From Dermatophagoides farinae (Eukaryota; Arthropoda; Arachnida; Sarcoptiformes; Pyroglyphidae): a DNA stretch of 64,000 nucleotides. Positions 1-29,462 of this stretch are shown here, piece after piece (the stretch's first letter is position 1; the number at the start of each line of letters is the position of its first letter). The DNA is taken from NCBI RefSeq assembly GCF_024713945.1, contig NC_134680.1, positions 5,001 through 69,000 of the forward strand, in the 5' to 3' direction. Below the pieces are notes generated by a model that saw only the letters and a list, made by a program, of their open reading frames with translations, did not search any database and had not been told where the DNA came from. The position numbers and the translations under genes were made by a program.

Positions 1-660
1 AACCTAACCTAACCTAACCTAACCTAACCTAACCTAACCTAACCTAACCTAACCTAACCTAACCTAACCTAACCTAACCTAACCTAACCTAACCTAACCT
101 AACCTAACCTAACCTAACCTAACCTAACCTAACCTAACCTAACCTAACCTAACCTAACCTAACCTAACCTAACCTAACCTAACCTAACCAACCTAACCTA
201 ACCTAACCTAACCTAACCTAACCTAACCTAACCTAACCTAACCTAACCTAACCTAACCTAACCTAACCTAACCTAACCTAACCTAACCTAACCTAACCTA
301 ACCTAACCTAACCTAACCTAACCTAACCTAACCTAACCTAACCTAACCTAACCTAACCTAACCTAACCTAACCTAACCTAACCTAACCTAACCTAACCTA
401 ACCTAACCTAACCTAACCTAACCTAACCTAACCTAACCTAACCTAACCTAACCTAACCCAACCTAACCTAACCTAACCTAACCTAACCTAACCTAACCTA
501 ACCTAACCAACCTAACCTAACCTAACCTAACCTAACCTAACCTAACCTAACCTAACCTAACCTAACCTAACCTAACCTAACCTAAACCTAACCTAACCTA
601 ACCTAACCTAACCTAACCTAACCTAACCTAACCTAACCTAACCTAACCTAACCTAACCTA
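1..660. repeat. Chromosome-end telomere, (AACCT)n
   Basis: About 130 near-perfect copies of AACCT, the C-rich strand of the arthropod TTAGG telomere, start at base 1. The C-rich strand read 5' to 3' from the left edge means the physical chromosome end lies to the left. A few units are imperfect: a missing CT near 187 and 506, CCCAACC near 456, and an extra A near 584. The array is directly fused to retroelement sequence through the degenerate joint at 661-689. Confidence 0.97.
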
Positions 661-689
661 TTTAATAACCTAACCTAATAACCTAATAA
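661..689. repeat. Degenerate telomeric joint before copy 1
   Basis: The repeat loosens into AATAACC/TAACCTAATAACC variants for about 29 bp before homology to the retroelement begins at 690. The preceding C of copy 1 aligns with base 10523 of copy 2. This looks like a junction created when a 5'-truncated element end was capped by new telomeric repeats. Confidence 0.75.
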
Positions 690-3600
690 CAACCAGCTGT
701 TCGTGCTTGTATCATTTTACTTAATCCATCATTATCGTCAATCATCATAACACATCTTTCAAACAGTGATTTCATCGTCGCCAACATTAATAACATAATC
801 ATAGCATCTGTGTATAGTGAACCGCACGGCAACATCAACAATACAATCAATTGTGTGATCAATACAGCGAATTATGCCAACAACAACAAATGCATTATAG
901 CCGGTGATTTCAATGCTAAATCAATTTACTGGGGTGAACCAACATCAGATGAACGTGGCCACGAAATAATATTAACGATAGTTCAGTGCAATCTTCATAT
1001 TTTGAATGAAGGAAATAGGCCAACTTTTGACACTGTGCGTGGTCAGCGCAGACTCACCTCATGCATTGATCTCACCCTAGTAAACGACAATCTTCTCGAT
1101 CAAATCAACAATTGGCATATTCATGACGAAATTCATCTGAGTGATCACCGGCCTATCACCTTCACCATCACTGACCAATGTATTGATCACCAACAAAACC
1201 AATCGACAACCAAATGGAACACGACCAACATAAATTGGACCGAATGGAGCTCAGATATCGAGTATCAGTTGCATGATCACAATTTGTCCGCCACCACTAT
1301 CAACAACATCAATGACACCAACGAACTGGATCTTGCCGTTACAATAATCACTGTATCCATTCAATTTGCATGCAACCTACATTGTGGTAAATATCGACAC
1401 AAACGTATACGACCGGCTAAATGGACGAGCAATCAATCACTATTGGACATCACAAAGAAACAAAAAGCAATTTATCGAAAAATTCGTCGATGCCACAATC
1501 CGTTCACGATAGAGAGATTGAAAAATGAATATATGATTGCCAGACAGCAGTATCGTGACATATCACAATCTTTAAAAAATGATGATTTCAACAAGTATCT
1601 AAATGGCCAAGGACCAGAGAACTGTTATCAGAAGGTCTGCCGGATGCTCAAAAATAGTGATGTCATGGTTGCTCGAACAATTGAAGGTACCAACAGCCCT
1701 ATCGAATCCACAACCAAACTGGTCAATTCATTATTTCCTGATGACGATTTTGACGATAGTAATGAACAACACGAGATACGTCAATTTACAGAAAAGTGGC
1801 TGAAGAAAAACAAAAACAATACTAGTGTGTCAGCTGTTTCGCTGCTAGAGCTGAATAATGTCATTCATAAATTCCGTGACGGCAAAGCACCAGGCTTCGA
1901 TGGTATATCACCGCGAATTTTGAAAAATCTTTGGCTCTCTTTTCCTGACCTGTTGCTCGCTTTATATAATGCATGTCTTCGACTAAAATATGTACCGTAC
2001 CTGTGGAAAAGCTCGATTATTCGTATATTACCGAAACCAGGTCGTGACGACTATAGCAAAACCAACGCTTATCGACCTATTGGTCTGATTTCCGTCTTGG
2101 GTAAAGTATTGGAACGAATAATGTCAATACGAATCACCAATCATCTTATCAGTAATGGCCACATGTCAGATTATCAATATGGTTTTATAGCTGGCAAATC
2201 TACTGATCATGCATTACTGAATCTACACAACGACCTGGAATCAGCCATCACCAGATTTAAGCACGTCTGTCTAATTTCGCTCGATATCAGAGGAGCTTTT
2301 GACCATACGTGGCATCCATTTATCATCAATCAATTGATCAACTATCGTGCGCCAAAATATTTAATCCAGCTGATTGACGCTTACCAAAATGATAGACGAA
2401 TCACAGCCAGTTACGGAGGCGTCACTTGCAACAAGACGACCAATAGGGGAACCGTTCAGGGTTCAATTCTGGGGCCATTGATGTGGAATCTGGTGGTGAA
2501 TGATCTTCTCTGTAAAAATTTCGGTCTGGATGTGAAAATTCAAGCCTATGCCGACGACGTTACCATGGTCGTGGCCTGTGACTGCATCAAATACATGCCG
2601 ATTAAAATAAATAAAATCCTGGAAATGGCCGCCAGCTGGGGACGTAAATGTAAGCTTACATTCTCCGAATCGAAGACCAAGATCATGTACGTCTCTAAAA
2701 AAATTGCACGTCCAATATATCCACCGGTAAGAATGAATGGCGCAATTATTGATCCAGTGAAAGAAACAAAAATTCTTGGCATAATAATTGATCATAAGCT
2801 TGATTATCGGCCTCATATTAAATACGCCATTGCCAAAGCCACGAGAATCAACAGAGCTGTAACTGGTATCGCTCGTAAGTCGCATGGTCTTAGCCCTCAG
2901 GTGCTAAGAATGATATACCATAGCATCACAGAGCCAATACTGTCTTATGGTGCCTTGATTACCGGTAGGGCTGTCAAGTATCAACATATACAAAAGATTC
3001 TCAGACAAATGGTCACACCAATGGCACAACAAGCTGTCAAAGCCTATAGATCGTCTTCATACATATCGGTTACAGCACTAGCTGATTTTCCTCCTATCGA
3101 ATTATTCATTGGATTCAGAGCAGCAATAGCAACAGCAAGAACAACAGGTCAGTATAAATATAATGATTTACCAATTACAGTAGATATAAATGACGATCTC
3201 AACAACAATACAATGAGCAAAATTACCACCATCATCAAAGAACCATCAGCATCACCACCGTTTAGAATCATAATCAAATCCATCAAAACAACAATGGGCG
3301 TCGGTGCTGCATTTATGATTTTTAACAACGAGAATATTATCGGCGTCAAACATTATCGTCTTCCTCCTTATTGTATGATACAACAAGCTGATTTTTTTGC
3401 CATATTAAAAGCAACAAATTGGATAAATGAAAATAGCAACAATCAAACGGTATATATCATCACCAACAACATAAGCACGGTACAACACATCAATCGTATT
3501 GACAGGAAAAACAGGCAAAGATTAGCAAATGAAATAATTGACAAATCCATCGATAATATTGTGATCGCCTGGAACAAAGTTGATAAAGCTGAACCATGGT

Positions 3601-4103
3601 ATCACAGGCTCAAAAAATATGCAAAAATAACAGCCAACAACCGTTCACGAGATTACGACTACACCAGGATGCCCATTAGTTTCGTCAAAAAATATGAACA
3701 CAACAATATGATGATAAGCTGGAACGATAGATATTTAAGAGATCGATTTGGCACAAATATCAAAAAGTTATGTCCAAACTTGCATGATGCACGTAAGTTC
3801 GTTCCATATATCGATAAATTCGTCACCCAGACGTTAACTGGTCACGGACAATTTGGCGCATATTTGTCAAAGTACGACACATCGAATGATAAAAAATGCT
3901 GCTGCGGATTCCGATTTCAGTCAGTCCAACACCTTATCAACGATTGTCATATGTTGAACCGTCTAAGACATGACTATCGAATTTCAATCAACAACAGTGA
4001 TGATCCCAAGGAAAAAACCAGATTAACGGCTGTCTTCTACGGTAATATTGCCATGTTCGCAGATCAACAAAGAAGATCAGTTCATCGTTTACATCCACCG
4101 TAA
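690..4103 (+). pseudogene. ORF2 fragment (endonuclease remnant, RT, RNase H-like, zinc motif)
   Basis: An open frame of about 1,137 codons runs without interruption from the truncation point to TAA at 4101-4103. It lacks the N-terminal part of the APE endonuclease, including the region with the first catalytic Asn and Glu, but keeps GDFNA, the IDLTLV strand and SDHRPI. The reverse transcriptase is complete, with YADD near base 2550, followed by the degenerate RNase H-like region and the C-terminal CxC-x8-H-x4-C motif. No ATG lies near the frame's start, so it is probably not expressed as a functional protein. Its coding sequence alternates between copy-2-like and copy-3-like variants, so it is a mosaic. 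Confidence 0.92.
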
Positions 4104-4204
4104 TCGTATGAATATCATTAACCGGTATCGCATCATGATGGCTAGTTATGCACAGCTAAACTGATGACATTGCACGGCATCTGCTCACTGATCTCCGGGA
4201 CCAC

Positions 4205-4363
4205 GCCAAACCGTCACGAGCGTAGCTCGTGAGGTTTGGCTCGAAATTCACTCCTACAGGACCCCCCGCCAAACCGTCACGAGCGTAGCTCGTGAGGTTT
4301 GGCTCAGAGTTCACTCCTCCGGGACAGCGCCAAACCTCACGAGCATAGCTCGTGAGGTTTGGC
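4205..4363 (+). repeat. Three tandem 3' UTR hairpins (copy 1)
   Basis: Hairpins at 4205-4240, 4268-4303 and 4329-4363 have the stem GCCAAACC(g)TCACGAGC against GCTCGTGAGGTTTGGC with a 3-nt loop. The first two carry one bulged G; the third lacks it and is a perfect palindrome. The spacing is 61-63 nt. Tandem structured repeats at the RNA 3' end of a non-LTR element are plausible binding sites for its reverse transcriptase (inference). Confidence 0.9.
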
Positions 4364-4374
4364 TTGCGGTCATT

Positions 4375-4388
4375 ACCTAACCTAACCT
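4375..4388. repeat. 14-nt telomeric linker between copies 1 and 2
   Basis: ACCTAACCTAACCT joins the 3' end of copy 1 to the 5' end of copy 2. The same 14 nt recur at 14209-14222 and 23915-23928. Confidence 0.9.
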
Positions 4389-4401
4389 AGCCTCTGCTAG
4401 G
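4386..4401 (+). other. Hairpin spanning telomere/element 5' junction
   Basis: CCTAGCCTCTGCTAGG forms a 6-bp stem with a CTCT loop. The first CCT is telomeric repeat and the rest is the element's 5' end. The same structure is present at the 5' ends of copies 3 and 4. Confidence 0.7.
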
Positions 4402-5218
4402 AAAGGGATGGTATGGTATCTGCTTGCATACACACACACAAGAATTTTTATCCACACACACCAGATTTTAATTATGTTAGACACGCACACAAGATACAAC
4501 ACTTGTAACAGACCTCTACACACACACACAAAAACACTTTGCAGCAGTACCAAATTGACATTTCCGGGTGGCTCCCGTAAATCGCTATGTCAATTAACTA
4601 GCGGAGGACCAGGACGTGAAGCTCGACCACCACAACAGCGTGACCACACATACACAACAATCTTTACAAGAATCAACCCACAGTAATTTAATTTAATGTT
4701 CCAACACAAACAAAGGACACAACAATTGTTACCAGACCCTACACTCACACATAGAACACAACACAGGGCCACTTGTGGTCACGCGTACCAACAGTCCCAG
4801 GGTGGCTCCCGTAAACAGCCACTGTTGTGTGCAGTTGTCTCAAAGTCCAAATAGTTACGGTCAAAAGCCAGTACCAACAAGAATCAACAAAAACAATCAC
4901 CACATAGTATTGGCCGCATCAGTCTACAAACATCATCAACGAATGAAGCATACACAACAAGAATCAACAACATTGAACAACAGTAACGCAACTGTCGTCT
5001 GTTCCAGTATAGCGATGCGGATCAACCAAATAATGTACCGGTAATCCAAACACAGCATCAACAGCGGCCTGCATCCCTGTTACAGTTTTCTTTTTTCGAT
5101 CCACGATCCATAGTATAAGGAAATCATGAAGAGAATCAGTGGGAAACAACCGGATCCGTAGTAGTGGCACGTCGCAACAGAAAAGTCAAAAAAAAAAAAA
5201 AAAATAAAAAAAATAGCG

Positions 5219-5245
5219 GCATGTGAAGTATTATACTTCACATGC
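5219..5245. repeat. Perfect 13-bp-arm palindrome in 5' UTR (copy 2)
   Basis: GCATGTGAAGTAT, a single T, then ATACTTCACATGC. It follows a long A tract. The equivalent in copy 3 carries paired changes that keep the stem, and copy 4 keeps an 11-bp-arm version, which favours a selected RNA hairpin. Confidence 0.85.
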
Positions 5246-7594
5246 ATTCCCACCATTGAAGTCTGTTCCAGTAATTTGAAACGTCTATGGCTTACTCAAT
5301 GGTATTTTTCCCGCCATACAGACCCAACAGACTTCATAGCTTAAATATGGTACAAATCAAGTCAGCATACAAATAAAATACAATGATCATCATAAAATTA
5401 ATATATATCATATTTCTGCTGTCCATCCATCTGAATAAACCCACCATGGCCAATCACGTGTACCATCAACAGCAACAACATCAAAATCCCGTCGAACCAA
5501 ATGAAATATTCGTGGATCTGCAATTAAAATAATAATAATCAACAATCATAATTATAACAAACAACAATAGATTATCACCAGTATTGAAACGATAAAATCA
5601 ACGGGTTAAAAACTAAACGTCCATCATATAAAACAACAGTATTCAGCATAAAATTGACTAGAATCCTAAAGAAAAATAAAAAACAAGAATCAACAAGCAT
5701 GCATATTTATCAAAAATAAAAACAACCTTACCAGTATCATAACAACGATAAAACCAACCAACGAAAATATAAAATCGAAAAATCAACGAAAATAAACAAC
5801 AAAACCAACAGTATTAATTTAAATTTAAAATTACCGTAATATGCATCTAAACAAAACAACAGACAAAACAACAATCATAAATCGACAATAAAATTAATCA
5901 CTTGTAAAGCTAAATAACAAGCAACAATCCACCGACAACAACATAATCAAGAATCAACAATCAACAAGAATAAAAATTCAACAAGAATCAACATCAAATA
6001 AAACTATGGACAAAACAATAACAAGAATCAACAACCAACAGTATTAAGAATCACCGGTATTGAAACAACACTAATTTAAAAACAACATAAATCAACAAGT
6101 TGCGACAAATATTTACATTATGTACAGACGATAAAAATAATTTAAAAATCCAACAAGTAACGACAACGAACCAACAGTATTCAAAACAAAATTTCGGATG
6201 ATAAAACCAACGAATTAAAACCACCGCATCTAAATTAAATCAACAAGAATTAACAGAATCAACAATATATCACAGGAATATTTACCAGTATTATCACAGA
6301 ACGAACGTTTTACCAAACCAAGAATCAACGGCAGCTGGACCAACCTGGGTGAAAAACAATATGATAAAAGCAATATAATTGATAATAATTTTTTGAAATG
6401 ATATCACCGGGTATAAATGAAGAATAAAACCAACGAATAAAAACGAGATTCCAACACGACGAGTCCATGGCCAATAGACCTGAAATAAATAAACAAAACA
6501 ATAATAATTGACAAATAATTAGCAGAATTATCACAGTCAGTATATCACAGTTGGTTCATCATAACTGGCACATCGTAGCGGAATTCTGGCCCATCCTGGA
6601 GAATTATCCATGATCAAATACAACAATCGTGTTTGGCTGGCAGAATCAGAATGGACCTCGATCGACCAAAAGCAGCAAAAAACCAGCATGGCACTTGAGC
6701 AGCGATGACGTGCAAAAATTTTCTTTTTCTCTTTCAAGTAGCTGCAATAATAGTCATCCAGTCATCATCGATTATAATGAACAAAATTGACCAACCAATC
6801 ATCATCATCAACATCACAACAAAAATTTGGCCAATTTATCATCATCAATGTCAAAACAATGTAAGTCATACAAACATGTCTCATTCACAACAACAAATAT
6901 ACACGCATGCACACGAACATGTAAATAATCGTTCATTTTTTGCCGCCAAATCAATTCAACCAGGATAGCTCAGGAAACAAAACAAAAGACAAAAATCCTT
7001 TTCTTTGATATGAAATTTGAACATTATGAGATTGTTATCCTCACTATTTCACATGCCACTATCGACATAAAAAATGTTAGGACACCACAACAAGATACAA
7101 ATTTTTTTCATATAAATATTTTTGCAAAACCGGCAAAACTTTGCAATTCGAACAACCTATTGGTATGATGAAAGATATTTTGTTCATTCTTGATTTGTTT
7201 TCTTTCCACACCAAATCATATCGTCTTTCACATTGTCGATCCTTGTATTTTTGTCGTTTTCTTTTCTCTTCATTTCACGACAATCTTTCACACACACCAC
7301 ACAAACATACAATCATTTCATTGCCATCTATAAACGCCTTACTTGCTCGGCTCAAATGAGTCGTGTTTACATCAATTTTTCTCATCCACAAAATTTTGTT
7401 TCAGTTTACAATTTTTCTTTTCATCACATCAAGTTTTCATTTATGTCTTTTTGATTTTCTGTACCAGTGATCTCTTTTTCCACTACTGGCTATAATCTCA
7501 TCATTCTCATCAATTGGCTTTTTCATCAAATTATTTCATCACAAATTCATTAATTTGGCTTTCTATTTCATTAATTGGCTCCATTCTCATCAAC

Positions 7595-7700
7595 TGGCTT
7601 ACAAATCATTATTTTTCATCATTTGGCTCAAAAATCATTATTTTTCATCATCTGGCTTACAAATCATCATTTTTCATCATTTGGCTTAAAAATCATCATC
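7595..7700 (+). repeat. 29-bp tandem repeats in 5' UTR (copy 2)
   Basis: About four units of TGGCTTA(C/A)AAATCAT.ATTTTTCATCA(TT/TC). Copy 3 has one unit fewer. Confidence 0.8.
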
Positions 7701-8439
7701 TTTTTTTTTTATTAACTGGCTTATATATCATCACTTTCATCTACTGGCTTAAAAATCATAATTTCATCAACTGGCTTTTATTTTCATTTTTTTTTTTTAT
7801 CATCCTGGCTTTCAATTTTATTATTTATTTTCGGCTTTCAACAATATCAACAATTTTCTGCTCATCAATATCATTATCTGGATTCAGTTTCCGTAAGCTT
7901 TCAATTTTCTTATTGCCGATCATTACCACCATCGCCGATCCTCCCATCACACATTTTATTATTATCACCATACACCAATTACATTGTTTATTAATTATCA
8001 TTCTTTATTCAATTACACATATCTCAAATAACATTCACATTTGCATAAATCATTATTATTATCACACAATAACCTTTACCAAACCAATTTCTTTGTTAGA
8101 TTCTATCACAAACCATATCAAATACAATTATATTTTTCTGGTAAATAAATAAATTTCTTTTTTTTTACAATCATACGAACCGACACCATATCCTTTATTA
8201 ATTGTCAACATTAACCACACTTTCATGTTATTTTCTGATTACATAATTCCATTCACAACTTTCACTTTTCATAAACCATTATTTCTTCTTTTGACCTTAC
8301 ATCAATTCGGTATTGGGTCATCATCATTTATCACAATCACAGCTTCGACTAAATCATTCACATCTCATTGACATTGAATCATCACACGTTTAATAAACAA
8401 TTGGCTCATCATTCATATAAATCAATCAATTCAACCTTG

Positions 8440-13936: not shown

Positions 13937-14037
13937 TCGTATGAATATCATTAACCGGTATCGCATCATGGTGGCTAGTTATGCACAGCTAAATTGATGA
14001 CATTGCACGGCATCTGCTCACCGATCTCCGGGACCAC

Positions 14038-14197
14038 GCCAAACCGTCACGAGCGTAGCTCGTGAGGTTTGGCTCGAAATTCACTCCTACAGGACCCCCC
14101 GCCAAACCGTCACGAGCGTAGCTCGTGAGGTTTGGCTCAGAGTTCACTCCTCCGGGACAGCGCCAAACCGTCACGAGCATAGCTCGTGAGGTTTGGC
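14038..14197 (+). repeat. Three tandem 3' UTR hairpins (copy 2)
   Basis: Hairpins at 14038-14073, 14101-14136 and 14162-14197 have the same 16-bp stem with a bulged G as in copy 1. The loop is GTA in the first two and ATA in the third. Confidence 0.9.
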
Positions 14198-14208
14198 TTG
14201 CGGTCATT

Positions 14209-17304: not shown

Positions 17305-17381
17305 TGGCTTACAAATCATTATTTTTCATCATTTGGCTTACAAATCATCATTTTTCATCATTTGGCTTAAAAATCATCATC
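17305..17381 (+). repeat. 29-bp tandem repeats in 5' UTR (copy 3)
   Basis: About three units of the repeat found at 7595-7700, followed by an expanded T tract (17381-17416). Confidence 0.8.
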
Positions 17382-17384
17382 TTT

Positions 17385-17415
<31 letters not shown>

Positions 17416-18145
17416 CATTAACTGGCTTATATATCATCACTTTCATCTACTGGCTTAAAAATCATAATTTCATCAACTGGCTTTTATTTTCATTTTTTTT
17501 TTTATCATCCTGGCTTTCAATTTTATTATTTATTTTCGGCTTTCAACAATATCAACAATTTTCTGCTCATCAATATCATTATCTGGATTCAGTTTCCGTA
17601 AGCTTTCAATTTTCTTATTGCCGATCATTACCACCATCGCCGATCCTCCCATCACACATTTTATTATTATCACCATACACCAATTACATTGTTTATTAAT
17701 TATCATTCTTTATTCAATTACACATATCTCAAATAACATTCACATTTGCATAAATCATTATTATTATCACACAATAACCTTTACCAAACCAATTTCTTTG
17801 TTAGATTCTATCACAAACCATATCAAATACAATTATATTTTTCTGGTAAATAAATAAATTTCTTTTTTTTTTACAATCATACGAACCGACACCATATCCT
17901 TTATTAATTGTCAACATTAACCACACTTTCATGTTATTTTCTGATTACATAATTCCATTCACAACTTTCACTTTTCATAAACCATTATTTCTTCTTTTGA
18001 CCTTACATCAATTCGGTATTGGGTCATCATCATTTATCACAATCACAGCTTCGACTAAATCATTCACATCTCATTGACATTGAATCATCACACGTTTAAT
18101 AAACAATTGGCTCATCATTCATATAAATCAATCAATTCAACCTTG

Positions 18146-19939: not shown

Positions 19940-22900
19940 TCATCAACCATCCAAAACCGAAAACCTCCGTATAGCTCAAATCAATTGCAATAAATCACCG
20001 ACTGCTCTTTCACAGTTTTTAACCTTCTGCGACGATAATAAAATTGACATAGGAATCATAAGTGAACCTCCTTTACGAAACAACATACCATCAATCAACA
20101 GTAAATTTAAACCAATGTATGTGACAAATCAGCTTCAATTACCGACGAATAATCAACGCATCACTCGACGACAAAGTGCTTCAAACAATCAATCAACATC
20201 CAACAACGACCAATCAAATAATAATAATCAACCAGCTGTTCGTGCTTGTATCATTTTACTTAATCCATCATTATCGTCAATCATCATAACACATCTTTCA
20301 AACAGTGATTTCATCGTCGCCAACATTAATAACATAATCATAGCATCTGTGTATAGTGAACCGAACGGCAACATCAACAATACAATCAATTGTGTGATCA
20401 ATACAACGAATTATGCCAACAACAACAAATGCATTATAGCCGGTGATTTCAATGCTAAATCAATTTACTGGGGTGAACCAACATCAGATGAACGTGGCCA
20501 CGAAATAATATTAACGATAGTTCAGTGCAATCTTCATATTTTGAATGAAGGAAATAGGCCAACTTTTGACACTGTGCGTGGTCAGCGCAGACTCACCTCA
20601 TGCATTGATCTCACCCTAGTAAACGACAATCTTCTTGATCAAATCAACAATTGGCATATTCATGACGAAATTCATCTGAGTGATCACCGGCCTATCACCT
20701 TCACCATCACTGACCAATGTATTGATCACCAACAAAACCAATCGACAACCAAATGGAACACGACCAACATAAATTGGACCGAATGGAGCTCAGATATCGA
20801 GTATCAGTTGCATGATCACAATTTGTCCGCCACCACTATCAACAACATCAATGACACCAACGAACTGGATCTTGCCGTTACAATAATCACTGTATCCATT
20901 CAATTTGCATGCAACCTACATTGTGGTAAATATCGACACAAACGTATACGACCGGCTAAATGGACGAGCAATCAATCACTATTGGACATCACAAAGAAAC
21001 AAAAAGCAATTTATCGAAAAATTCGTCGATGCCACAATCCGTTCACGATAGAGAGATTGAAAAATGAATATATGATTGCCAGACAGCAGTATCGTGACAT
21101 ATCACAATCTTTAAAAAATGATGATTTCAACAAGTATCTAAATGGCCAAGGACCAGAGAACTGTTATCAGAAGGTCTGCCGGATGCTCAAAAATAGTGAT
21201 GTCATGGTTGCTCGAACAATTGAAGGTACCAACAGCCCTATCGAATCCACAACCAAACTGGTCAATTCATTATTTCCTGATGACGATTTTGACGATAGTA
21301 ATGAACAACACGAGATACGTCAATTTACAGAAAAGTGGCTGAAGAAAAACAAAAACAATACTAGTGTGTCAGCTGTTTCGCTGCTAGAGCTGAATAATGT
21401 CATTCATAAATTCCGTGACGGCAAAGCACCAGGCTTCGATGGTATATCACCGCGAATTTTGAAAAATCTTTGGCTCTCTTTTCCTGACCTGTTGCTCGCT
21501 TTATATAATGCATGTCTTCGACTAAAATATGTACCGTACCTGTGGAAAAGCTCGATTATTCGTATATTACCGAAACCAGGTCGTGACGACTATAGCAAAA
21601 CCAACGCTTATCGACCTATTGGTCTGATTTCCGTCTTGGGTAAAGTATTGGAACGAATAATGTCAATACGAATCACCAATCATCTTATCAGTAATGGCCA
21701 CATGTCAGATTATCAATATGGTTTTATAGCTGGCAAATCTACTGATCATGCATTACTGAATCTACACAACGACCTGGAATCAGCCATCACCAGATTTAAG
21801 CACGTCTGTCTAATTTCGCTCGATATCAGAGGAGCTTTTGACCATACGTGGCATCCATTTATCATCAATCAATTGATCAATTATCGTGCGCCAAAATACT
21901 TAATCCAGCTGATTGATGCATACCAAAACGATAGACGAATCACAGCCAGTTATGGAGGCGTCACATGCAACAAGACGACCAATAGGGGAACCGTTCAGGG
22001 TTCAATTCTGGGGCCATTGATGTGGAATCTGGTGGTGAATGATCTTCTCCGCAAAAATTTCGGTCTGGATGTGAAAATTCAAGCCTATGCCGACGACGTC
22101 ACCATGGTCGTGGCCTGTGATTGCATCAAATACATGCCGGTTAAAATAAATAAAATCCTGGAAATGGCCGCCAGCTGGGGACGTAAATGTAAGCTTACAT
22201 TTTCCGAATCGAAAACCAAAATCATGTACGTTTCAAAGAAAATTGCACGTCCAATATATCCACCGGTAAGAATGAATGGCGCAATTATTGATCCAGTGAA
22301 AGAAACAAAAATTCTTGGCATAATAATTGATCATAAGCTTGATTATCGGCCTCATATTAAATATGCCATCGCCAAAGCCACGAGAATTAACAGAGCTGTA
22401 ACTGGTATCGCTCGTAAGTCGCATGGTCTCAGCCCTCAGGTGCTAAGAATGATATACCATAGCATCACAGAGCCAATTATGTCTTATGGTGCCTTGATTA
22501 CCGGTAGGGCTGTCAAATATCAGCATATCCAAAAGATCCTCAGACAAATGGTCACACCAATGGCACAACAAGTTGTAAAAGCATATAGATCGTCTTCATA
22601 CATATCGGTTACAGCATTGGCTGATTTCCCACCTATCGAATTATTCATTGGATTCAGAGCAGCAATAGCGACAGCAAGAACAACAGGTCAGTATAAATAT
22701 AATGATTTACCAATTACAGTAGATATAAATGACGATCTCAACAACAATACAACGAGCAAAATTACCACCATCATCAAAGAACCATCAGCATCACCACCGC
22801 TTAGAATCATAATTAAATCCATCAAAACAACAATGGGCGTCGGTGCTGCATTCATGATTTTTAACAGCAATAATATTATTGGCGTCAAACATTATCGTCT

Positions 22901-23642
22901 TGCTCCTTATTGTATGCTACAACAAGCTGATCTCTTTGCCATAATGAAAGCAACAAATTGGATAAATGAAAATAGCAACAATCAAACGGTATATATCATC
23001 ACCAACAACATAAGCACGGTACAACACATCAATCGTATTGACAGGAAAAACAGGCAAAGATTAGCAAATGAAATAATCGACAAATCCATTGATAATATTG
23101 TGATCGCCTGGAACAAAGTGGATAAAGCTGAACCATGGTATCACAGGCTCAAAAAATATGCAAAAATAACAGCCAACAACCGTTCACGAGATTACGACTA
23201 CACCAGGATGCCCATTAGCTTCGTCAAAAAATATGAACACAACAATATGATGATAAGCTGGAACGATAGATATTTAAGAGATCGATTTGGCACAAATATC
23301 AAAAAGCTATGTCCGAATCTACATGACGCACGTAAGTTCGTCCCATACGTTAACAATTTCGTCACCCAGACGTTAACTGGTCACGGACAATTTGGTGCTT
23401 ATCTATCAAAATTTGACATATCGAATGACAAAAAATGTTGCTGTGGTTTCCGATTTCAATCAGTTCAACACCTCATCAATGATTGTCAAATGTTGAACCA
23501 TCTAAGACGTGATTATCGAATTTCAATCAATAGTACCGACGATGCCAGGGAAAAAACCAGGTTAACAGCAGTCTTTTACGGTAATATTGCAATGTTTGCT
23601 GATCAACATAGAAGATCAATTCATCGTTTACATCCACCGTAA
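19914..23642 (+). CDS. Retrotransposon ORF2 polyprotein, copy 3
   Basis: About 1,242 residues with all the domains of copy 2: complete APE endonuclease (GDFNA, SDHRPI), RT with YADD near base 22088, RNase H-like region and C-terminal CxC-x8-H-x4-C. As in copy 2 the frame begins inside the end of ORF1 without an ATG. It differs from copies 1 and 2 at many C-terminal residues (for example YVNNF for YIDKF and NSTDDARE for NNSDDPKE) but shares other blocks with copy 1 (EKWLKKNKNNTS, DYTRMPISFVKKYEH). No stops or frameshifts are seen, so it may be active. Confidence 0.94.
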   Translation: MPTKFNIINHQPSKTENLRIAQINCNKSPTALSQFLTFCDDNKIDIGIISEPPLRNNIPSINSKFKPMYVTNQLQLPTNNQRITRRQSASNNQSTSNNDQSNNNNQPAVRACIILLNPSLSSIIITHLSNSDFIVANINNIIIASVYSEPNGNINNTINCVINTTNYANNNKCIIAGDFNAKSIYWGEPTSDERGHEIILTIVQCNLHILNEGNRPTFDTVRGQRRLTSCIDLTLVNDNLLDQINNWHIHDEIHLSDHRPITFTITDQCIDHQQNQSTTKWNTTNINWTEWSSDIEYQLHDHNLSATTINNINDTNELDLAVTIITVSIQFACNLHCGKYRHKRIRPAKWTSNQSLLDITKKQKAIYRKIRRCHNPFTIERLKNEYMIARQQYRDISQSLKNDDFNKYLNGQGPENCYQKVCRMLKNSDVMVARTIEGTNSPIESTTKLVNSLFPDDDFDDSNEQHEIRQFTEKWLKKNKNNTSVSAVSLLELNNVIHKFRDGKAPGFDGISPRILKNLWLSFPDLLLALYNACLRLKYVPYLWKSSIIRILPKPGRDDYSKTNAYRPIGLISVLGKVLERIMSIRITNHLISNGHMSDYQYGFIAGKSTDHALLNLHNDLESAITRFKHVCLISLDIRGAFDHTWHPFIINQLINYRAPKYLIQLIDAYQNDRRITASYGGVTCNKTTNRGTVQGSILGPLMWNLVVNDLLRKNFGLDVKIQAYADDVTMVVACDCIKYMPVKINKILEMAASWGRKCKLTFSESKTKIMYVSKKIARPIYPPVRMNGAIIDPVKETKILGIIIDHKLDYRPHIKYAIAKATRINRAVTGIARKSHGLSPQVLRMIYHSITEPIMSYGALITGRAVKYQHIQKILRQMVTPMAQQVVKAYRSSSYISVTALADFPPIELFIGFRAAIATARTTGQYKYNDLPITVDINDDLNNNTTSKITTIIKEPSASPPLRIIIKSIKTTMGVGAAFMIFNSNNIIGVKHYRLAPYCMLQQADLFAIMKATNWINENSNNQTVYIITNNISTVQHINRIDRKNRQRLANEIIDKSIDNIVIAWNKVDKAEPWYHRLKKYAKITANNRSRDYDYTRMPISFVKKYEHNNMMISWNDRYLRDRFGTNIKKLCPNLHDARKFVPYVNNFVTQTLTGHGQFGAYLSKFDISNDKKCCCGFRFQSVQHLINDCQMLNHLRRDYRISINSTDDAREKTRLTAVFYGNIAMFADQHRRSIHRLHPP

Positions 23643-23743
23643 TCATATGAATATCATTAACCGGTATTGCATCGTGGTTGCCAAATATGCTCAGCTAATT
23701 TGATTACATTGCATGGCGTCTGCTCACCGATCTCCGGGACCAC

Positions 23744-23903
23744 GCCAAACCGTCACGAGCATAGCTCGTGAGGTTTGGCTCGAAGCTCACTCCTCCAGGA
23801 CCACCCGCCAAACCGTCACGAGCGTAGCTCGTGAGGTTTGGCTCAGAGTTCACTCCTCCGGGACAGCGCCAAACCGTCACGAGCGTAGCTCGTGAGGTTT
23901 GGC
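23744..23903 (+). repeat. Three tandem 3' UTR hairpins (copy 3)
   Basis: Hairpins at 23744-23779, 23807-23842 and 23868-23903 have the same stem as the other copies. Loop ATA/GTA usage differs from copies 1 and 2 while the stems are kept. Confidence 0.9.
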
Positions 23904-23914
23904 TTGCGGACATT

Positions 23915-23928
23915 ACCTAACCTAACCT
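23915..23928. repeat. 14-nt telomeric linker between copies 3 and 4
   Basis: ACCTAACCTAACCT, the third identical linker. The following AGCCTCTGCTAGG restores the 5'-end hairpin of copy 4. Confidence 0.9.
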
Positions 23929-26916
23929 AGCCTCTGCTAGGGAAGGGATGGTATGGTATCTGCTTGCAAACATACACACAAGATTTTATCCAAACACACC
24001 AGAATTTATCCACACACACACCAGTTTTTATTATGTTAAACACACCCACATAAGATACAACATCTGTAACAGACTTCTACATACACACACAAAAACACTT
24101 TGCAGCAGTACCAAATTGACATTTCCGGGTGGCTCCCGTAAATCGCTATGTCAATTAACCAGCGGAGGACCAGGACGTGAAGCTCGACCAAAACAACAGC
24201 GTGACCACACATACACAACAATCATTACAAGAATTAATCCACAGTAATTTAATTTAATGTTCCACACAAACAATGGACACAACACCTGTTACCAGACCCT
24301 ACACTCACACATAGAACACAACATAGGGCCACTTGTGGTCACGCGCACCAACAGTCCCAGGGTGGCCCCCGTAAACAGCCACTGTTGTGTGCAGTTGCCT
24401 AGTAATCAAAGTATTAACGATTCAAGCTGGAGCAAATCAAAATCAACATGAAACGGCATCTCATCATATTTGGCCATACTAGTCAACAACAAAAACAACA
24501 TTAAACAATAGCAACGTAATTTATCGTCTGTTCCAACACAGCAACGTAAATCGATGAAATAATGTACCGGTAGTCCAAAAACAACAACAAACAGCGGCCT
24601 GCATCCTTCTCACAGCTTTCCGATCCATGATCCATAGTATAAGAAAATTTTGAAAAAAATCAACAGAAAACAACCGGATCAATGGTAGTGGCACTTCACA
24701 ACAAAAGAGTCAAAAAAAAAATAACGGCATGTGAAGTATTAACTTCACATGCAATTCCATCATTGAAGTCTGTTCCAATAATTTGAAACGTCTATGGCTC
24801 ATCCAATGGTATGTTTCCCGCCACATAAACGCAACAGACTATATGGCCTAAATATGGTATAAATCAAGTTAACATATGAACAAGTGCACAATGATCATCA
24901 TCATAAAAATTAATAATATAGTATATATCATATTTCTGCGGCCCATCCATTTGAATATATCCGTCATGGCCAATCATTGGGTACCATCAACAGCAACAAC
25001 ATACGCCCCATCAAATCGAACAAAATACTCGCAGGATCTACAATTAAAAAACAGAAATTAACAATCAATATAATTATGACAAATAATAACAAATATCACC
25101 GGTATTGGAACGATAAAATCAACAGGTTAAAAACGAATACGACCACCATATAAAACAACAGAATCAACAAGAAAACAACAGTATTCAACATTAATTGACT
25201 AGAATCCTAGAGAAAAATAAAAAACAAGAATCAACAGTATTTATAATTATCAAAAATAGTAACAACATCACCAGTATTATAAAAACGATAAAACCAACCA
25301 ACGAGAATATAAAACCGAAAAATCAACAAGAATAACCAACAAAAAACCAACAGTATTAATTAATTTAAAATCACCATGGACGAAACCAACAAACAACTAA
25401 AATCAATGATAAAAAAAAAAAGAAAAATAATCAACAGTATTTAAATTCAACGAATAATAATAATTACCAATGAAAACAATTATAAACGACCACAATCCAA
25501 ATCAATAATTTAAATAACAAGAATCAACAATATAACCGACAACAACGATAACAATAACAATCAGCATAAAACCGTTAAATTAAAATCTGAAAAATAAAAT
25601 CAACAACAACAATAATCAATAATATCAACAAGTAAACAACAACACTTACCAGTATTCATTTGACAAAGTAACAACAACGAACGAATGGAATCAACAAGGC
25701 ACCGCCAACCTATAAGAAAGATTCTGTAAAGAAAACTAATGTGGTATATAATTAATCATAATGATTATCAACAATATTACCGGGCGACAAATGATGGTTT
25801 TGGCGATGAAAGAAATGATACAACCACATGACGATGACAACGATTCTAATGGAACATCATAGCCAGATCTCGGCACCAAGCAGAACGATGATATATGAAT
25901 ATTAAAATGGAACACCAAGAATTTACCATCAACATTGGATATGGCTGGCAGAACCACAATACAACACCAGTAGCAACAACGAAACCAAAACCAGCATGGC
26001 AAAACATGACAATGGCGTTTTGCAATAATCATGACAACTGAGTGGCATTTACAATCAACAATTAATCATACAGTCAACATTGAACGAAAAAAAAAAGAAA
26101 AATTGGCCAACTCACTAGCAAAACAACGTAAGTCATGCAAAAATCTTAGTCCATTCATAACAATGTCAATGTACACGCATGCACACAAACAAAGAAAACA
26201 AAGAAAACAATCTTTTCTTTTTGGCGCCAATTAACGCCCAACAAATAGATCATGAAACAAAAATCCATTTTCTTGTATACGAATTGACCATTATCAGACA
26301 TAGTTTTTACTATTTTGTGTACCACTTGTACATCGAATACACCACTAGGACACAAAAACATGCTACAAATTTTTCAATATAAAAATCTTGATGAAACAAG
26401 CAATCGTTGCGATTTACAACGACCTAGTGTTGTGATGAAAGACATTTTTCAATCTTTGATTTTCTCTCCCACACACCGCGTCATATTGTATCCAATCTTG
26501 TCGATTTTCATCTTTGTCGTTTTCTTTTTCATTTCTTCACGACAATCATCGACACATACACCATACAAAACACACATTCATTTACACAGCCATCTACACA
26601 CACGTCTTGGCCCGTTGGCTCAAACATGTCACAATACATAGGACACACAGGGTCTTTCTTTTCCTTTCCTTTTCTTTCTTCCCACACATACAAGAAATGG
26701 ACACATTTTTATTTTTGGAATCATTTTCTTTATTCAATTTTATTGTTGTTTTTTTTATTATTATTTTACTTATGTTTTTTTTTTCTGATCCATTGATATC
26801 AGTCTTTTATTTGATTCTGTATTATTTTTGAGGTCCTTGGTTTGGCCATTTGCCGACCTATTTTAAAAGAAAGAAAATAAAATTTAATTTTTTAATTAAA
26901 AAAAAAAAAAAAAAAA
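23929..26916 (+). mobile_element. Non-autonomous relative (copy 4): family 5' leader with a poly(A) 3' end
   Basis: The first 2.7 kb align, with divergence, to the 5' UTR of copies 2 and 3 (same 5' end, CA-rich tract, palindrome, CAACAAGAATC-rich part, GTAAGT region, T-rich part). Past about 26640 the sequence departs from the autonomous family. It continues with a T-rich segment, the motif TTGGTTTGGCCATTTGCCGA and a poly(A) tail (26898-26916) fused to CCTAACCT. It has no ORF1, no ORF2 and no hairpin 3' UTR. It must rely on proteins made elsewhere. Confidence 0.85.
24727..24752. repeat. 11-bp-arm palindrome in leader (copy 4)
   Basis: GCATGTGAAGT, ATTA, ACTTCACATGC. It occupies the same leader position as the palindromes of copies 2 and 3, with the inner pairs lost and a 4-nt loop. 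Confidence 0.8.
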
Positions 26917-26924
26917 CCTAACCT

Positions 26925-27820
26925 CATCGATTATAATGAACAAATTTGACCAACCAATCATCATCATCAACATCACAACAAAAATTTGGCCAATTTGTCA
27001 TCATCAATGTCAAAACAATGTAAGTCATACAAACATGTCTCATTCACAACAACAAATATACACGCATGCACACGAACATGTAAATAATCGTTCATTTTTT
27101 GCCGCCAAATCAATTCAACCAGGATAGTTCAGGAAACAAAACAAAAGACAAAAATCCTTTTCTTTGATATGAAATTTGAACATTATGAGATTGTTATCCT
27201 CACTATTTCACATGCCACTATCGACACAAAAAATGTTAGGACACCACAACAAGATACAAATTTTTTTCATATAAATATTTTTGCAAAACCGGCAAAACTT
27301 TGCAATTCGAACAACCTATTGGTATGATGAAAGATATTTTGTTCATTCTTGATTTGTTTTCTTTCCACACCAAATCATATCGTCTTTCACATTGTCGATC
27401 CTTGTATTTTTGTCGTTTTCTTTTCTCTTCATTTCACGACAATCTTTCACACACACCACACAAACATACAATCATTTCATTGCCATCCACATATGTCAAA
27501 CCTGCATGGCACAGGTACACACGCACAGGTATATACACCGGCACACACAGGGTTTTTCTTTTTCCTATTTTCTTTCTCCCCTCACATACAATGACATGAA
27601 CACACTCTAAATTAATTTAAATCAAATTTTATTTCAATTTTATTTTTGTTACTTTTTTTATTATTATTTTATATGTGTGTTTTTTTTTACTTTCATCTTC
27701 AATCGAATCCATTATTTTTATTGAGTTGTAATTTGATCGAAGTTCTTGGTTTGGCCATTGCCGACCTATTTTTTAAAGAAAGAAAAATAAAATTTATTTT
27801 TAATTTAAAAAAAAAAAAAA
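26925..27820 (+). mobile_element. Poly(A)-tailed non-autonomous element a, 5'-truncated
   Basis: Starts in leader sequence equivalent to about base 6766 of copy 2 and follows the leader to about 27480. It then switches to the alternative 3' segment ending in GGTTTGGCCATTGCCGACC, AAATAAAATTT and poly(A) at 27807-27820. Telomeric repeat lies on both sides (CCTAACCT at 26917-26924, CCTAACC at 27821-27827). There is no coding capacity. Confidence 0.85.
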
Positions 27821-27827
27821 CCTAACC

Positions 27828-28576
27828 ATGTAAATAATCGTTCATTTTTTGCCGCCAAATCAATTCAACCAGGATAGTCCAGAAAACAAAACAAAAGACA
27901 AAAATCCTTTTTCTCTGACATGAAAATTGAACATTATGAGATTGTTATCCTCACTATTTCACATGCCACTATCGACACAAAAAATGTTAGGACACCACAA
28001 CAAGATACAAATTTTTTTTTCATATAAATATTTTTGCAAAACCGGCAAAACTTTGCAATTCGAACAACCTATTGGTATGATGAAAGATATTTTGTTCATT
28101 CTTGATTTGTTTTCTTTCCACACCAAATCATATCGTCTTTCACATTGTCGATCCTTGTATTTTTGTCGTTTTCTTTTCTCTTCATTTCACGACAATCTTT
28201 CACACACACCACACAAACATACAATCATTACATTGCCATCCACATATGTCTAACCTGCATGGCACAGGTACACACGCACAGGTATATACACCGGCACACA
28301 CAGGGTTTTTCTTTTTTCCTATTTTCTTTCTCCCCTCACATACAATGACATGAACACACTCTAAATTAATTTAAATCAAATTTTATTTCAATTTTATTTT
28401 TGTTACTTTTTTATTATTATTTTATATGTGTTTTTTTTTTTACTTTCATCTCCAATCGAATCCATTATTTTTTGAGTTGTAATTTGATCGAAGTTCTTGG
28501 TTTGGCCATTGCCGACCTATTTCTTAAAGAAAGAAAAATAAAATTTATTTTTAATTTAAAAAAAAAAAAAAAAAAA
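27828..28576 (+). mobile_element. Poly(A)-tailed non-autonomous element b, 5'-truncated
   Basis: Nearly identical to element a over their shared length but truncated about 150 bp further in. The same alternative 3' segment and poly(A) (28558-28576) are followed by three telomeric units at 28577-28591. The repeated finding of one leader-to-3' junction shows a real family, not a one-off chimera. Confidence 0.85.
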
Positions 28577-28591
28577 CCTAACCTAACCTAA
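28577..28591. repeat. Telomeric linker, three units
   Basis: CCTAACCTAACCTAA between the poly(A) of element b and the start of element c. Confidence 0.85.
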
Positions 28592-29440
28592 TTTTTAATC
28601 TGTGATCGTGTTCGTCGAATTGTGTGGCTGTGACCTACGTTTTTCGTGTCCTGTCACCTTCCCATTTACTGTGTGATTTTTTGAACATTGACATTGTGAT
28701 TTTGTCGATCTTTCACCTGTGTTTTGTGCTTCGAGTCGGCTGGTGCAAATGGCCCAGACCAAAAGAAAAGGCAGATCACCTAACGACGATATGGAGCGAG
28801 GAATGAAGCAACCACGTGATCATGCAAATGTGACTTCCCTCGGGAAAGCTTCGACACAGGGAACCAGCAAGCAGCCGAATGAACCACTCATCACCATCGA
28901 TGACACTTCTGATTCCGGCGACGATGCTGCCACATTCTCATCCATTCCTGAATCCAATGCCGATAAAAAAATCCTCACCACCACCATAACGAATGTCGAA
29001 CCGGCTCAATTGGCCCTTAAAGAATTCATGGACGTAAATGGCACGATTAAGGATTCCACCAAACTACGTGTGATTGCCGCCTTACAAACGGTTTCGGCTT
29101 TTCAACAAGAAGTCCTCACCCGTATTGTTAAAATGATGGCCGCCCAAAGATATTTAAACCTGGGTAATGTCGAATCAATTGTTGGTAATGGGAATGCTGA
29201 AAACGTCCGACAACAACACCAAAATTCATTTCTCTTTTCGCCAGATAAAATTTCTTTTATTTTTCTTTTCTTTCATTCTATTCTGTTAAATTTTTTATTT
29301 TTTCATTCTGGCTTCATGATGTCAACCCAAATTCTTGATTCCATTTTTATATCATGTTTTTAATGATTGGCCATAGCCGATCAAATTTAATTTGGTTAAT
29401 AAATAAATTCAATTTTTAAAAAAAAAAAAAAAAAAAAAAA
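28592..29440 (+). mobile_element. Poly(A)-tailed element c encoding an ORF1-like protein only
   Basis: An 850-bp unit with a G/T-rich 5' part unlike the other elements, one ORF (28749-29363), the 3' motif GATTGGCCATAGCCGATC (a variant of the 3' motif of elements a, b and copy 4) and poly(A) at 29418-29440. It is flanked by telomeric motifs. It has no endonuclease or RT, so its mobility must depend on an autonomous relative. Confidence 0.8.
28749..29363 (+). CDS. ORF1-like N-terminal protein of a non-autonomous telomeric element
   Basis: A 204-aa frame from the ATG at 28749 (the frame is open 10 codons upstream without ATG). Residues 1-50 are basic then acidic (TKRKGRS; ITIDDTSDSGDD), like the start of ORF1. 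Residues around 85-130 (ALKEFMDVNGTIKDSTKLRV, then IAALQ) match the ORF1 segment ALGMAMDLKGNISTEKKFQT followed by ITALK. It ends before the zinc-knuckle region; the last 45 residues read through T-rich, UTR-like DNA and may not be meaningful. I infer a trimmed Gag retained because it helps element RNA reach the telomere. Homology is by eye; a profile comparison with ORF1 would confirm it. Confidence 0.65.
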   Translation: MAQTKRKGRSPNDDMERGMKQPRDHANVTSLGKASTQGTSKQPNEPLITIDDTSDSGDDAATFSSIPESNADKKILTTTITNVEPAQLALKEFMDVNGTIKDSTKLRVIAALQTVSAFQQEVLTRIVKMMAAQRYLNLGNVESIVGNGNAENVRQQHQNSFLFSPDKISFIFLFFHSILLNFLFFHSGFMMSTQILDSIFISCF

Positions 29441-29462
29441 CCAACCTAACCTACAAACCCAA
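29441..29462. repeat. Telomeric/degenerate telomeric motif
   Basis: CCAACCTAACCT followed by ACAAACCCAACC. It joins element c to a diverged hairpin 3' UTR. Confidence 0.75.

What the first reader, a model, noticed from the sequence alone, without database searches (positions are those of the whole stretch)
1..29452. Chromosome end built of TTAGG repeats plus head-to-tail non-LTR elements, all with 3' ends toward the centromere
Seen: telomeric repeat at base 1, then seven consecutive elements or fragments in one orientation, each separated by 7-15 nt of AACCT repeat. Known: Drosophila HeT-A/TART/TAHRE arrays have this polarity because cDNA synthesis primes from the chromosome 3' end, while silkworm TRAS/SART cut into TTAGG arrays. 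Inference: this mite may use terminal priming on a TTAGG overhang, combining both strategies. I know of no description of this in mites.
Basis: partly seen in the sequence, partly recalled or inferred. Interest (0 to 1): 0.92.

Follow-up and report, generated by a model that had tools for sequence, protein, structure and literature searches.

The report
Mite chromosome ends built of retrotransposons
At most chromosome ends of this assembly, apparently a house dust mite, the short telomere repeat is joined to long head-to-tail rows of retrotransposons that nearly all point the same way and resemble the silkworm telomere element TRAS, in an animal that also keeps a telomerase gene.

Summary
The assembly fits Dermatophagoides farinae (62.4 Mb). 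Window base 1 is the inner edge of a scaffold gap, not the terminus. ACCTAACCTAACCTA at 4375, 14209 and 23915 lies inside the element's 3' UTR; four true poly(A)-TTAGG linkers (10, 9, 17, 15 nt) remain. Genome-wide, 47 of 51 poly(A)-CCTAACC junctions and 31 of 37 main ORF2 matches lie at contig ends; 45/47 and 30/31 point 3' toward the centromere. Five ORF2 groups (39-54% identity between groups) have stop-free copies; dN/dS is low where measurable. Closest solved protein: TRAS1 endonuclease (1e-26; R1Bm 0.003). Junction register is compatible with the published TRAS1 nick (TT^AGG), and the shortest uninterrupted linker (8 nt) with its 7-bp recognition. A telomerase gene is present. Best reading: TRAS-type nick-primed insertion into TTAGG; polarity follows from strand choice and does not show terminal priming, which is not excluded. 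New here: a hairpin plus 10-15-nt telomere-complementary motif conserved in 3' UTRs across families, 5' ends fused to other elements' 3' UTRs, and mostly very short linkers.

The parts
1..686 (.). TTAGG (AACCT) array distal to the outermost element; its left edge is a 2500-N scaffold gap
687..7328 (+). F1 copy 1: 5'-truncated ORF2 (687-4103; one stop reported in the wider match) and 3' UTR without its last ~330 nt and poly(A); fused directly to copy 2
7329..17039 (+). F1 copy 2: 5' UTR, ORF1 8368-10233 (three zinc-knuckle-like motifs), ORF2 10208-13936 (endonuclease + reverse transcriptase), 3' UTR; fused to copy 3 at ~17040-17066
17040..26914 (+). F1 copy 3: ORF1 18074-19939, ORF2 19914-23642, 3.3-kb 3' UTR ending in poly(A)
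4201..4364 (+). 3' UTR hairpins of copy 1 (three tandem ~61-63-nt units)
14026..14198 (+). 3' UTR hairpins of copy 2; the 231-nt region 14020-14250 folds as RNA with z = -8.8
14209..14223 (+). internal telomere-complementary motif, copy 2
23732..23904 (+). 3' UTR hairpins of copy 3
23915..23929 (+). internal telomere-complementary motif, copy 3
26915..26924 (+). true linker, 10 nt, after poly(A)
26925..27818 (+). 5'-truncated element, B-type 3' UTR with poly(A)
27819..27827 (+). true linker, 9 nt
27828..28574 (+). second 5'-truncated B-type 3' UTR with poly(A)
28575..28591 (+). true linker, 17 nt
28592..29438 (+). short element, read as an internally deleted derivative: 5' UTR, start of an ORF1-like frame, 3' tail, poly(A); 84-95% relatives at C6L and C3L
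29439..29453 (+). innermost true linker (AACCAACCTAACCTA), 15 nt
29464..29577 (+). array-boundary module: two hairpins with TTC loops; the same kind follows the last linker read at C3L, C6L and C2R
30748..31980 (-). related, degraded ORF2 fragment in the opposite orientation

Best explanation
The window shows one of many chromosome ends made of head-to-tail LINEs of the TRAS type, capped by TTAGG repeats, in an animal with a telomerase gene. Proposed cycle (inferred): the ORF2 endonuclease nicks the G-rich strand at TT^AGG; the 3' end ...GGTT primes reverse transcription of the poly(A) tail; the cDNA grows toward the terminus, so the element's 3' end faces the centromere; its 5' end joins the remaining TTAGG cap, more often than expected after ...AACC. 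Repeated insertion builds rows of elements. The mostly short linkers are either what survives because longer interstitial tracts break, or a sign that insertion happens when the tract is already short. Hairpins and a C-strand telomere motif in the RNA may help bring it to the G strand. Shown: polarity, junction class, linker lengths, stop-free ORFs and low dN/dS, location, telomerase gene. Inferred: the nick, the priming step, the role of the motif, any benefit to the host.
For: Closest solved protein is TRAS1 endonuclease, E 1.1e-26 against 0.0029 for R1Bm (1.1e-25 for whole ORF2). GDFN and SDH motifs are kept in 13 of 13 aligned ORF2s, all without stops; whole-ORF2 dN/dS 0.12 (copy 2 vs 3), 0.10, 0.12, 0.04 (F2 pair) and 0.10. 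Junction class: A10+CCTAACC 51 matches, 47 at contig ends; A10+TAACCTA 4 and A10+CTAACCT 1, none at an end. The published TRAS1 nick TT^AGG with 7 bp upstream and 3 bp downstream (PMC7265360 passages) predicts poly(A)|AACC and linkers of at least 7 nt: 27 uninterrupted linkers run 8-46 nt, most often 9 (7 of 27). 5' boundary AACC| in 12 of 27, 20% expected, P 0.003, matching the published TRAS position between C and T. Polarity 45/47 junctions, 30/31 end ORF2s. TTAGG lies outside the outermost element read on C4L, C6L and C7L and at the ends of C3R and C7R. Telomerase gene: Telomerase_RBD 3.9e-16, RVT_1 1.8e-13.
Against: The junction class A(n)CC covers three of five possible joins, so it fits TT^AGG without proving that exact base. 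Reversed-pattern controls gave 10, 3 and 29 chance hits genome-wide. Eleven of 38 tracts are interrupted and run on, some to 28-200 nt. Three A-runs continue otherwise (TG-TAACC, CCCCCTA, CAAAATC). Two 3' ends abut TTAGG without poly(A) (C2R 39677, C7L 16910). Some sub-region dN/dS values are higher on few changes (RT of copy 3 vs C3L 0.44; EN of copy 2 vs C1R 0.27). Five of 37 main ORF2 matches carry stops. Clade membership rests on the endonuclease. Contigs C3L and C10L begin inside an element, so their caps are unseen. Junctions are not all independent.
Confidence: 0.75

Rival explanations
1. Terminal priming: the RNP uses the chromosome's own 3' TTAGG overhang as primer, as in Drosophila HeT-A/TART, and telomerase afterwards heals the new end. 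Each cycle leaves only one to three repeats as linker.
For: Uniform polarity; most linkers very short; 5'-truncated elements beside linkers; variable 5' boundary (12 AACC, 5 CCTAA, 4 AAC, 4 CCTA, 2 CCT of 27), as telomerase healing could give; a telomere-complementary motif in the RNA.
Against: A single 3' junction class needs one fixed overhang end; endonuclease motifs conserved and under purifying selection; among the long A-runs examined, element tails are followed by telomere-like sequence with two exceptions (CCCCCTA, CAAAATC at C2R); TTAGG outside the outermost element at several ends; MoTeR work shows short interstitial tracts without this model.
Confidence: 0.16
2. Arrays grew mainly by recombination (unequal exchange, break-induced replication), not by serial insertion; the 9.7-kb units of the window are tandem duplicates.
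For: Units 1-3 are fused without poly(A) or TTAGG; ORF1 is identical over about 2 kb in copy 2 and copy 3, and nearly so in C3L, C7L and C1R, while the 3' UTRs of copies 2 and 3 are only 63-83% alike in six of the last seven windows, a mosaic that points to exchange; MoTeR arrays can extend this way.
Against: Many other neighbours are different families or different truncations, each with its own poly(A) and linker, which duplication alone cannot create.
Confidence: 0.25
3. The single-polarity end arrays are an assembly product (collapsed repeats, scaffolding choices).
For: A PacBio assembly merged from three assemblers and scaffolded by Hi-C (passages); gaps and flips at ends: C4:1-5000, C8L before an N run, a head-to-head palindrome in C5, facing boundary modules at C9R.
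Against: The array, its inner boundary and about 30 kb of flanking sequence lie in one window in which I saw no gap; similar arrangements recur at many contig ends with different element content.
Confidence: 0.03

Closest known systems
TRAS1/TRAS family of Bombyx mori (R1 clade, telomere-specific LINE)
   Same: Two ORFs, endonuclease most like TRAS1, insertion in TTAGG, junction class compatible with TT^AGG, 5' side enriched for the published site between C and T of CCTAA, host keeps a TERT gene
   Different: Arrays with mostly 8-26-nt TTAGG between elements; several deeply diverged families side by side; no opposite-polarity SART-like partner seen; 3.3-kb 3' UTR with tandem hairpins and a 10-15-nt telomere motif; many 5'-truncated copies, whereas a review says only full-length ones are identified at Bombyx telomeres (PMC4700185 passage)
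SART1 of Bombyx mori
   Same: Telomere-like short sequences in the 3' UTR downstream of a stem-loop, proposed to anneal to the target (PMC7265360 passages)
   Different: Opposite polarity; SART1's are GGUU/AGG, here up to three full C-strand repeats
HeT-A/TART/TAHRE of Drosophila
   Same: Head-to-tail, 3' ends to the centromere, long 3' UTR, G-poor sense strand, 3' UTR pieces at 5' ends recalling TART's non-terminal repeats (review passages; details of TART recalled)
   Different: TTAGG linkers and caps and a telomerase gene are present; one junction class
MoTeRs (Magnaporthe) and FoTeRs (Fusarium)
   Same: Telomere LINEs; MoTeR 5' ends always nearest the chromosome end, short stable interstitial telomere tracts, truncated copies (passages)
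   Different: They have restriction-like endonucleases; here an APE-type TRAS-like one
GilM/GilT of Giardia
   Same: Head-to-tail arrays in one direction between subtelomere and telomere repeats (review passage)
   Different: Not compared by sequence here

Membership tests
TRAS-type telomere-specific LINE (R1 clade) | ORF2 with APE endonuclease nearest TRAS1 and a reverse transcriptase | tested here: met
   1wdu TRAS1 E 1.1e-26, R1Bm 0.0029; RVT_1 and Exo_endo_phos_2
TRAS-type telomere-specific LINE (R1 clade) | Insertion in (TTAGG)n in the register of the TRAS1 nick | tested here: met
   51 matches in the compatible class (47 at ends) against 4 and 1, none at ends; the class spans three of five possible joins; 7 of 38 tails have the variant CCAACC
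TRAS-type telomere-specific LINE (R1 clade) | Polarity set by priming on the G strand (3' end toward the centromere) | tested here: met
   45 of 47 end junctions, 30 of 31 end ORF2s; the Bombyx polarity is inferred from the nicked strand
TRAS-type telomere-specific LINE (R1 clade) | ORF1 with CCHC knuckles (recalled as typical of the clade) | tested here: met
   knuckle-like motifs at 540 and 562 and a looser third at 583 of ORF1
TRAS-type telomere-specific LINE (R1 clade) | Reverse transcriptase groups with TRAS in a tree | not tested
   no TRAS/SART reverse transcriptase sequences were at hand
TRAS-type telomere-specific LINE (R1 clade) | Endonuclease cuts TTAGG | not testable with these tools
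   needs biochemistry
HeT-A/TART-like terminal retrotransposons | Attachment to the bare chromosome end, no telomerase repeats | tested here: not met
   TTAGG linkers and caps; telomerase gene
HeT-A/TART-like terminal retrotransposons | Head-to-tail arrays with 3' ends to the centromere, at ends only | tested here: met
   with the exceptions named in the report (one reversed piece, two reversed junctions, a pair in mid C5)
TART | 5' and 3' non-terminal repeats | tested here: inconclusive
   C7L copy starts with 263 bp 98.5% identical to its own family's 3' UTR, but other copies carry other families' 3' UTRs
SART | Opposite polarity in TTAGG | tested here: not met

The most novel reading that the evidence does not exclude
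The element RNAs carry a structured 3' UTR module, tandem hairpins followed by up to three C-strand telomere repeats, that acts as a built-in guide: it base-pairs with the G-rich telomere end and brings the RNP to nearly exhausted TTAGG tracts. Several diverged TRAS-like families would share this module and together buffer chromosome ends as a second, RNA-guided end-extension system beside telomerase.
Probability: 0.25. Interest if true: 0.82.

Novelty: new variant of a known kind. Interest (0 to 1): 0.62.

Why it matters
It extends telomere-targeted LINEs with a TRAS-like endonuclease to what appears to be a mite, where my searches showed no description (listings; passages), and shows an animal with a telomerase gene in which 15 of 20 assembled scaffold ends carry retrotransposon arrays of very roughly 9-54 kb. 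It sits between the silkworm (elements inside TTAGG) and Drosophila (elements instead of TTAGG), and so bears on how a telomerase telomere could turn into a retrotransposon telomere. The conserved telomere-complementary 3' UTR module makes the question of how such RNAs find the chromosome end directly testable.

Tried and rejected
Rejected: base 1 as the chromosome terminus. Rejected: the three 15-nt motifs as linkers. Rejected: polarity as proof of terminal priming, because a strand-specific endonuclease gives the same. Rejected: absence of a telomerase gene. Considered: a known RNA family or ribozyme in the array; Rfam gave 0 matches at E up to 1 in window 1-31000. Considered: an ORF1 family; no Pfam match up to E 5. 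Considered: an RNase H domain after the reverse transcriptase; Pfam gave none up to E 5. A small DNA alignment of hairpin units was superseded by a direct pair count: 10 distinct hairpins among 41; few pairs vary, with compensatory changes (C-G to A-T at arm-1 pair 3, A-T to G-C at pair 4, C-G to T-A at pair 2) and also mismatches (arm-1 pairs 1, 3 and 7, arm-2 pairs 5 and 6). DNA palindromes would vary in the same way, so this does not prove an RNA structure. An idea that the fused 5' ends come from splicing was dropped because the break point seen (…GGCTCAAAC|ATG…) shows no GT donor; template jumping or recombination remain.

Literature searches touching telomeric retrotransposons or telomerase in mites; no such report seen in the listings (15 of 43, 15 of 19, 0, 2 of 2, 10 of 330 and 2 of 2 papers listed). 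In PMC7738191 (a mite genome) the word telomere does not occur in the main text; in PMC11074847 telomere and retrotransposon occur only in reference titles. Papers seen as passages only: PMC7265360, PMC5537684, PMC4700185, PMC7367193, PMC12857005, PMC2868851, PMC7738191; PMC11074847 as outline with abstract and passages. Two original TRAS1/SART1 papers were not held.


Full report
What the window is. The window is G000:C4:5001-69000 in a 62,435,336-bp assembly of 22 contigs. Size, ten large scaffolds and a 7.118-Mb scaffold fit the D. farinae assembly described as 62.43 Mb, 10 pseudochromosomes, N50 7.11 Mb (PMC11074847 abstract). The species name is therefore an inference. C4:1-2500 is repeat-rich sequence that starts in the opposite, GGTTA, orientation and later becomes degenerate; a 2500-N gap follows. 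Window base 1 is thus the edge of a gap inside a scaffold end.

Anatomy of the window. After the 1-686 AACCT array comes element F1 three times: a 5'-truncated copy (687 to ~7328), copy 2 (7329 to ~17039) and copy 3 (17040-26914). Copies 2 and 3 have ORF1 (621 aa, three zinc-knuckle-like motifs) and ORF2 (1242 aa, APE-type endonuclease, reverse transcriptase). The motif ACCTAACCTAACCTA at 4375, 14209 and 23915 lies in the 3' UTR: the copies at C3L, C7L and C1R run through it, and on C3L and C1R the sequence continues about 3 kb to a poly(A). Copies 1-2 and 2-3 are fused with neither poly(A) nor TTAGG. Then follow two 5'-truncated pieces (26925-27818, 27828-28574) and a short element that I read as internally deleted (28592-29438), separated by true poly(A)-TTAGG linkers of 10, 9, 17 and 15 nt. 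The array ends at a hairpin module (29464-29577). A degraded related ORF2 piece lies in reverse at 30748-31980.

Distribution. A 1.9-kb ORF2 DNA query gave 13 matches and an 871-bp 3' UTR query 17 matches. All 30 lie at contig ends, + at left ends and - at right ends. The ORF2 protein gave 47 rows (37 of 124 first-look candidates were scored, so this is a lower bound): 37 main matches and 10 short N-terminal pieces that lie next to ten of them. Of the 37, 31 lie at contig ends and 30 of these face the same way; the exception is the reversed piece in the window. The other six are four distant LINEs (28-30% identity) and a head-to-head pair in the middle of C5. Five of the 37 carry stops. Fifteen of 20 ends of the ten large scaffolds show array matches; C1L, C2L, C5L, C5R and C9L do not (my tally).

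Junctions. A10+CCTAACC occurs 51 times: 47 near contig ends, 45 of them with the 3' side toward the centromere. The two exceptions are C8:9923, in a stretch followed by an N run, and C9:3580433, beside an inverted boundary module. The four internal ones are C3:1655571 and three on C5. The other two classes give 4 and 1 matches, none at an end. The pattern read backwards, as a control, gives 10, 3 and 29 hits genome-wide in the three searches, so some of the 51 could be chance, but only four lie away from ends. Because the A-run hides the A's of the repeat, A(n)CC stands for three of five possible joins, TT^AGG among them. If the join were random, 3/5 would fall in this class, giving about 4e-11 for 47 independent junctions; they are not fully independent, so this overstates. 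One search lists 46 A-runs of 12 or more in the held ends; three likely tails continue otherwise: TG-TAACC, CCCCCTA and CAAAATC. Seven of 38 tails continue as CC-AACC, a TTGG variant exactly at the junction, which I cannot explain.

Linkers. Of 50 A-runs of 13 or more, 38 lead into telomere-like sequence. Eleven of the 38 are interrupted and run on after an irregularity; several of these reach 28-200 nt when counted through. The 27 uninterrupted ones measure 8-46 nt, most often 9 (7 of 27), and 24 of 27 are at most 26 nt. The 5' boundary falls after AACC in 12 of 27 (P 0.003 against 20%), CCTAA 5, AAC 4, CCTA 4, CCT 2. The published TRAS1 endonuclease needs 7 bp upstream and 3 bp downstream of TT^AGG, which predicts a minimum of 7 nt. 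In MoTeR arrays stable interstitial tracts hold at most two repeats because longer ones break (PMC7367193 passages). Selective loss of long linkers therefore could explain the excess of short ones without terminal priming; near-terminal insertion would also do.

Proteins. The endonuclease matches TRAS1 (1wdu) at 1.1e-26 and R1Bm at 0.0029. Thirteen ORF2s from eight ends, chosen from the held sequence, have no stops; the GDFN and SDH motifs are kept in 13 of 13 and the QINCN and SEP motifs in the seven whose compared frame includes them. Identities are about 96-100% within F1, 73-74% F1-F2, 53-54% to F3, 39-42% to the rest, with 76-80% and 43-49% among the rest. Whole-ORF2 dN/dS is 0.04-0.12 in the five pairs with measurable dS; four more distant pairs were saturated; single domains reached 0.27 and 0.44 on few changes. 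A telomerase candidate at C1:166455-166832 (-) has Telomerase_RBD and RVT_1 in an 847-aa frame; its activity is unknown.

The 3' UTR module. Two or three ~61-63-nt hairpins (GCCAAACC-N-TCACGAGC-NNN-GCTCGTGAGGTTTGGC) are followed, 12-13 nt later where measured, by telomere-like motifs of 10-15 nt, in families whose ORF2s share only about 40% of residues. I tallied 16 such modules in the held sequence; two more have a degenerate motif (C7L 6162, C6R 8568). The 231-nt region folds with z = -8.8. TCACGAGCNNNGCTCGTGAGGTT gives 68 matches (nine self-palindromic places count twice): 66 within about 55 kb of contig ends, 2 at C5:2827478-2827561, 0 elsewhere; the reversed control gives 0. Variants with a TTC loop follow the last linker read at C3L, C4L, C6L and C2R and sit at comparable distances at other ends; C6L has two such sites (about 4.1 and 13.2 kb). 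Distances from contig end to the TTC-loop module, about 9 kb at C7R to 54 kb at C2R, are what I give as array size; they are rough. SART1 has shorter telomere-like sequences below a stem-loop, proposed to anneal to the target. That the mite motif guides the RNA is a hypothesis; an alternative is that the module was captured from subtelomeric DNA.

5' ends. Four F1 copies that reach far enough carry 3' UTR sequence at their 5' side without poly(A): own type at C7L (263 bp, 98.5%), B type in window copies 2 and 3, and 2.9 kb of a different family at C1R. On C7L the 3' UTR of F1 runs directly into F2. Template jumping during cDNA synthesis or recombination can produce this; TART's non-terminal repeats are the nearest parallel. 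ORF1 is nearly or fully identical over about 2 kb in five copies on four ends, while 3' UTRs of copies 2 and 3 diverge, so exchange among copies has occurred.

Weighing. Polarity alone cannot separate nick-primed from end-primed insertion. Junction class, endonuclease kinship and conservation, and the minimum linker favour a TRAS-type nick; linker shortness and variable 5' boundaries leave room for insertion at nearly exhausted ends. I file this as TRAS-like by endonuclease and insertion site, with reverse-transcriptase phylogeny untested.

Noticed in passing
L039 (C5:2829500-2833500): Near-perfect head-to-head palindrome, 3.1-kb arms at 96.5%, of telomeric element sequence in the middle of C5, with end-type hairpins nearby: a chromosome-end fusion or a join/read artefact.
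   Followed up: partly
C9:3578115-3580643: Two boundary hairpin modules facing each other with poly(A)-TTAGG junctions of both orientations: a second possible head-to-head join.
   Followed up: no
L009 (C4:1-2500) and L016 (C8:1-10000): Scaffold-end stretches that look reversed and precede N runs; C4's degenerates into GGGGA- and CCGAA-like repeats, possibly sequencing or consensus error.
   Followed up: partly
window 28592-29438; relatives at C6L 2118-2999 and C3L 21492-22367: Short element with a 5' UTR, the start of an ORF1-like frame and a 3' tail, 84-95% alike at three ends: looks like a non-autonomous internally deleted family.
   Followed up: partly
window 18260-19760 and equivalents at C3L, C7L, C1R: ORF1 region 99.6-100% identical per 500-bp window in five copies on four ends while 3' UTRs of copies 2 and 3 diverge: mosaic exchange.
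   Followed up: partly
window 687-29453: Strand toward the centromere is G-poor (G 0.148, C 0.223; 5' UTR of copy 3 G 0.065), mean GC skew -0.215 against -0.040 in the flank, as described for Drosophila telomere elements.
   Followed up: partly
C1R 20334, 33045; C2R 27526, 36653; C4L 34440; C6R 21543; C10R 3505: Seven of 38 poly(A) tails continue as CC-AACC, a TTGG variant repeat exactly at the junction; by eye this looks more frequent than inside the caps.
   Followed up: no
L041 (C7:4931500-4932500): TTAGG-like hexamers appear in place of expected bases in a copy of the 3' UTR module near the contig end; possibly consensus error.
   Followed up: no
C6L 4105-4182 and C6:13184: Two boundary-type hairpin modules at one end, each preceded by poly(A)-TTAGG junctions, as if two arrays were stacked.
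   Followed up: no
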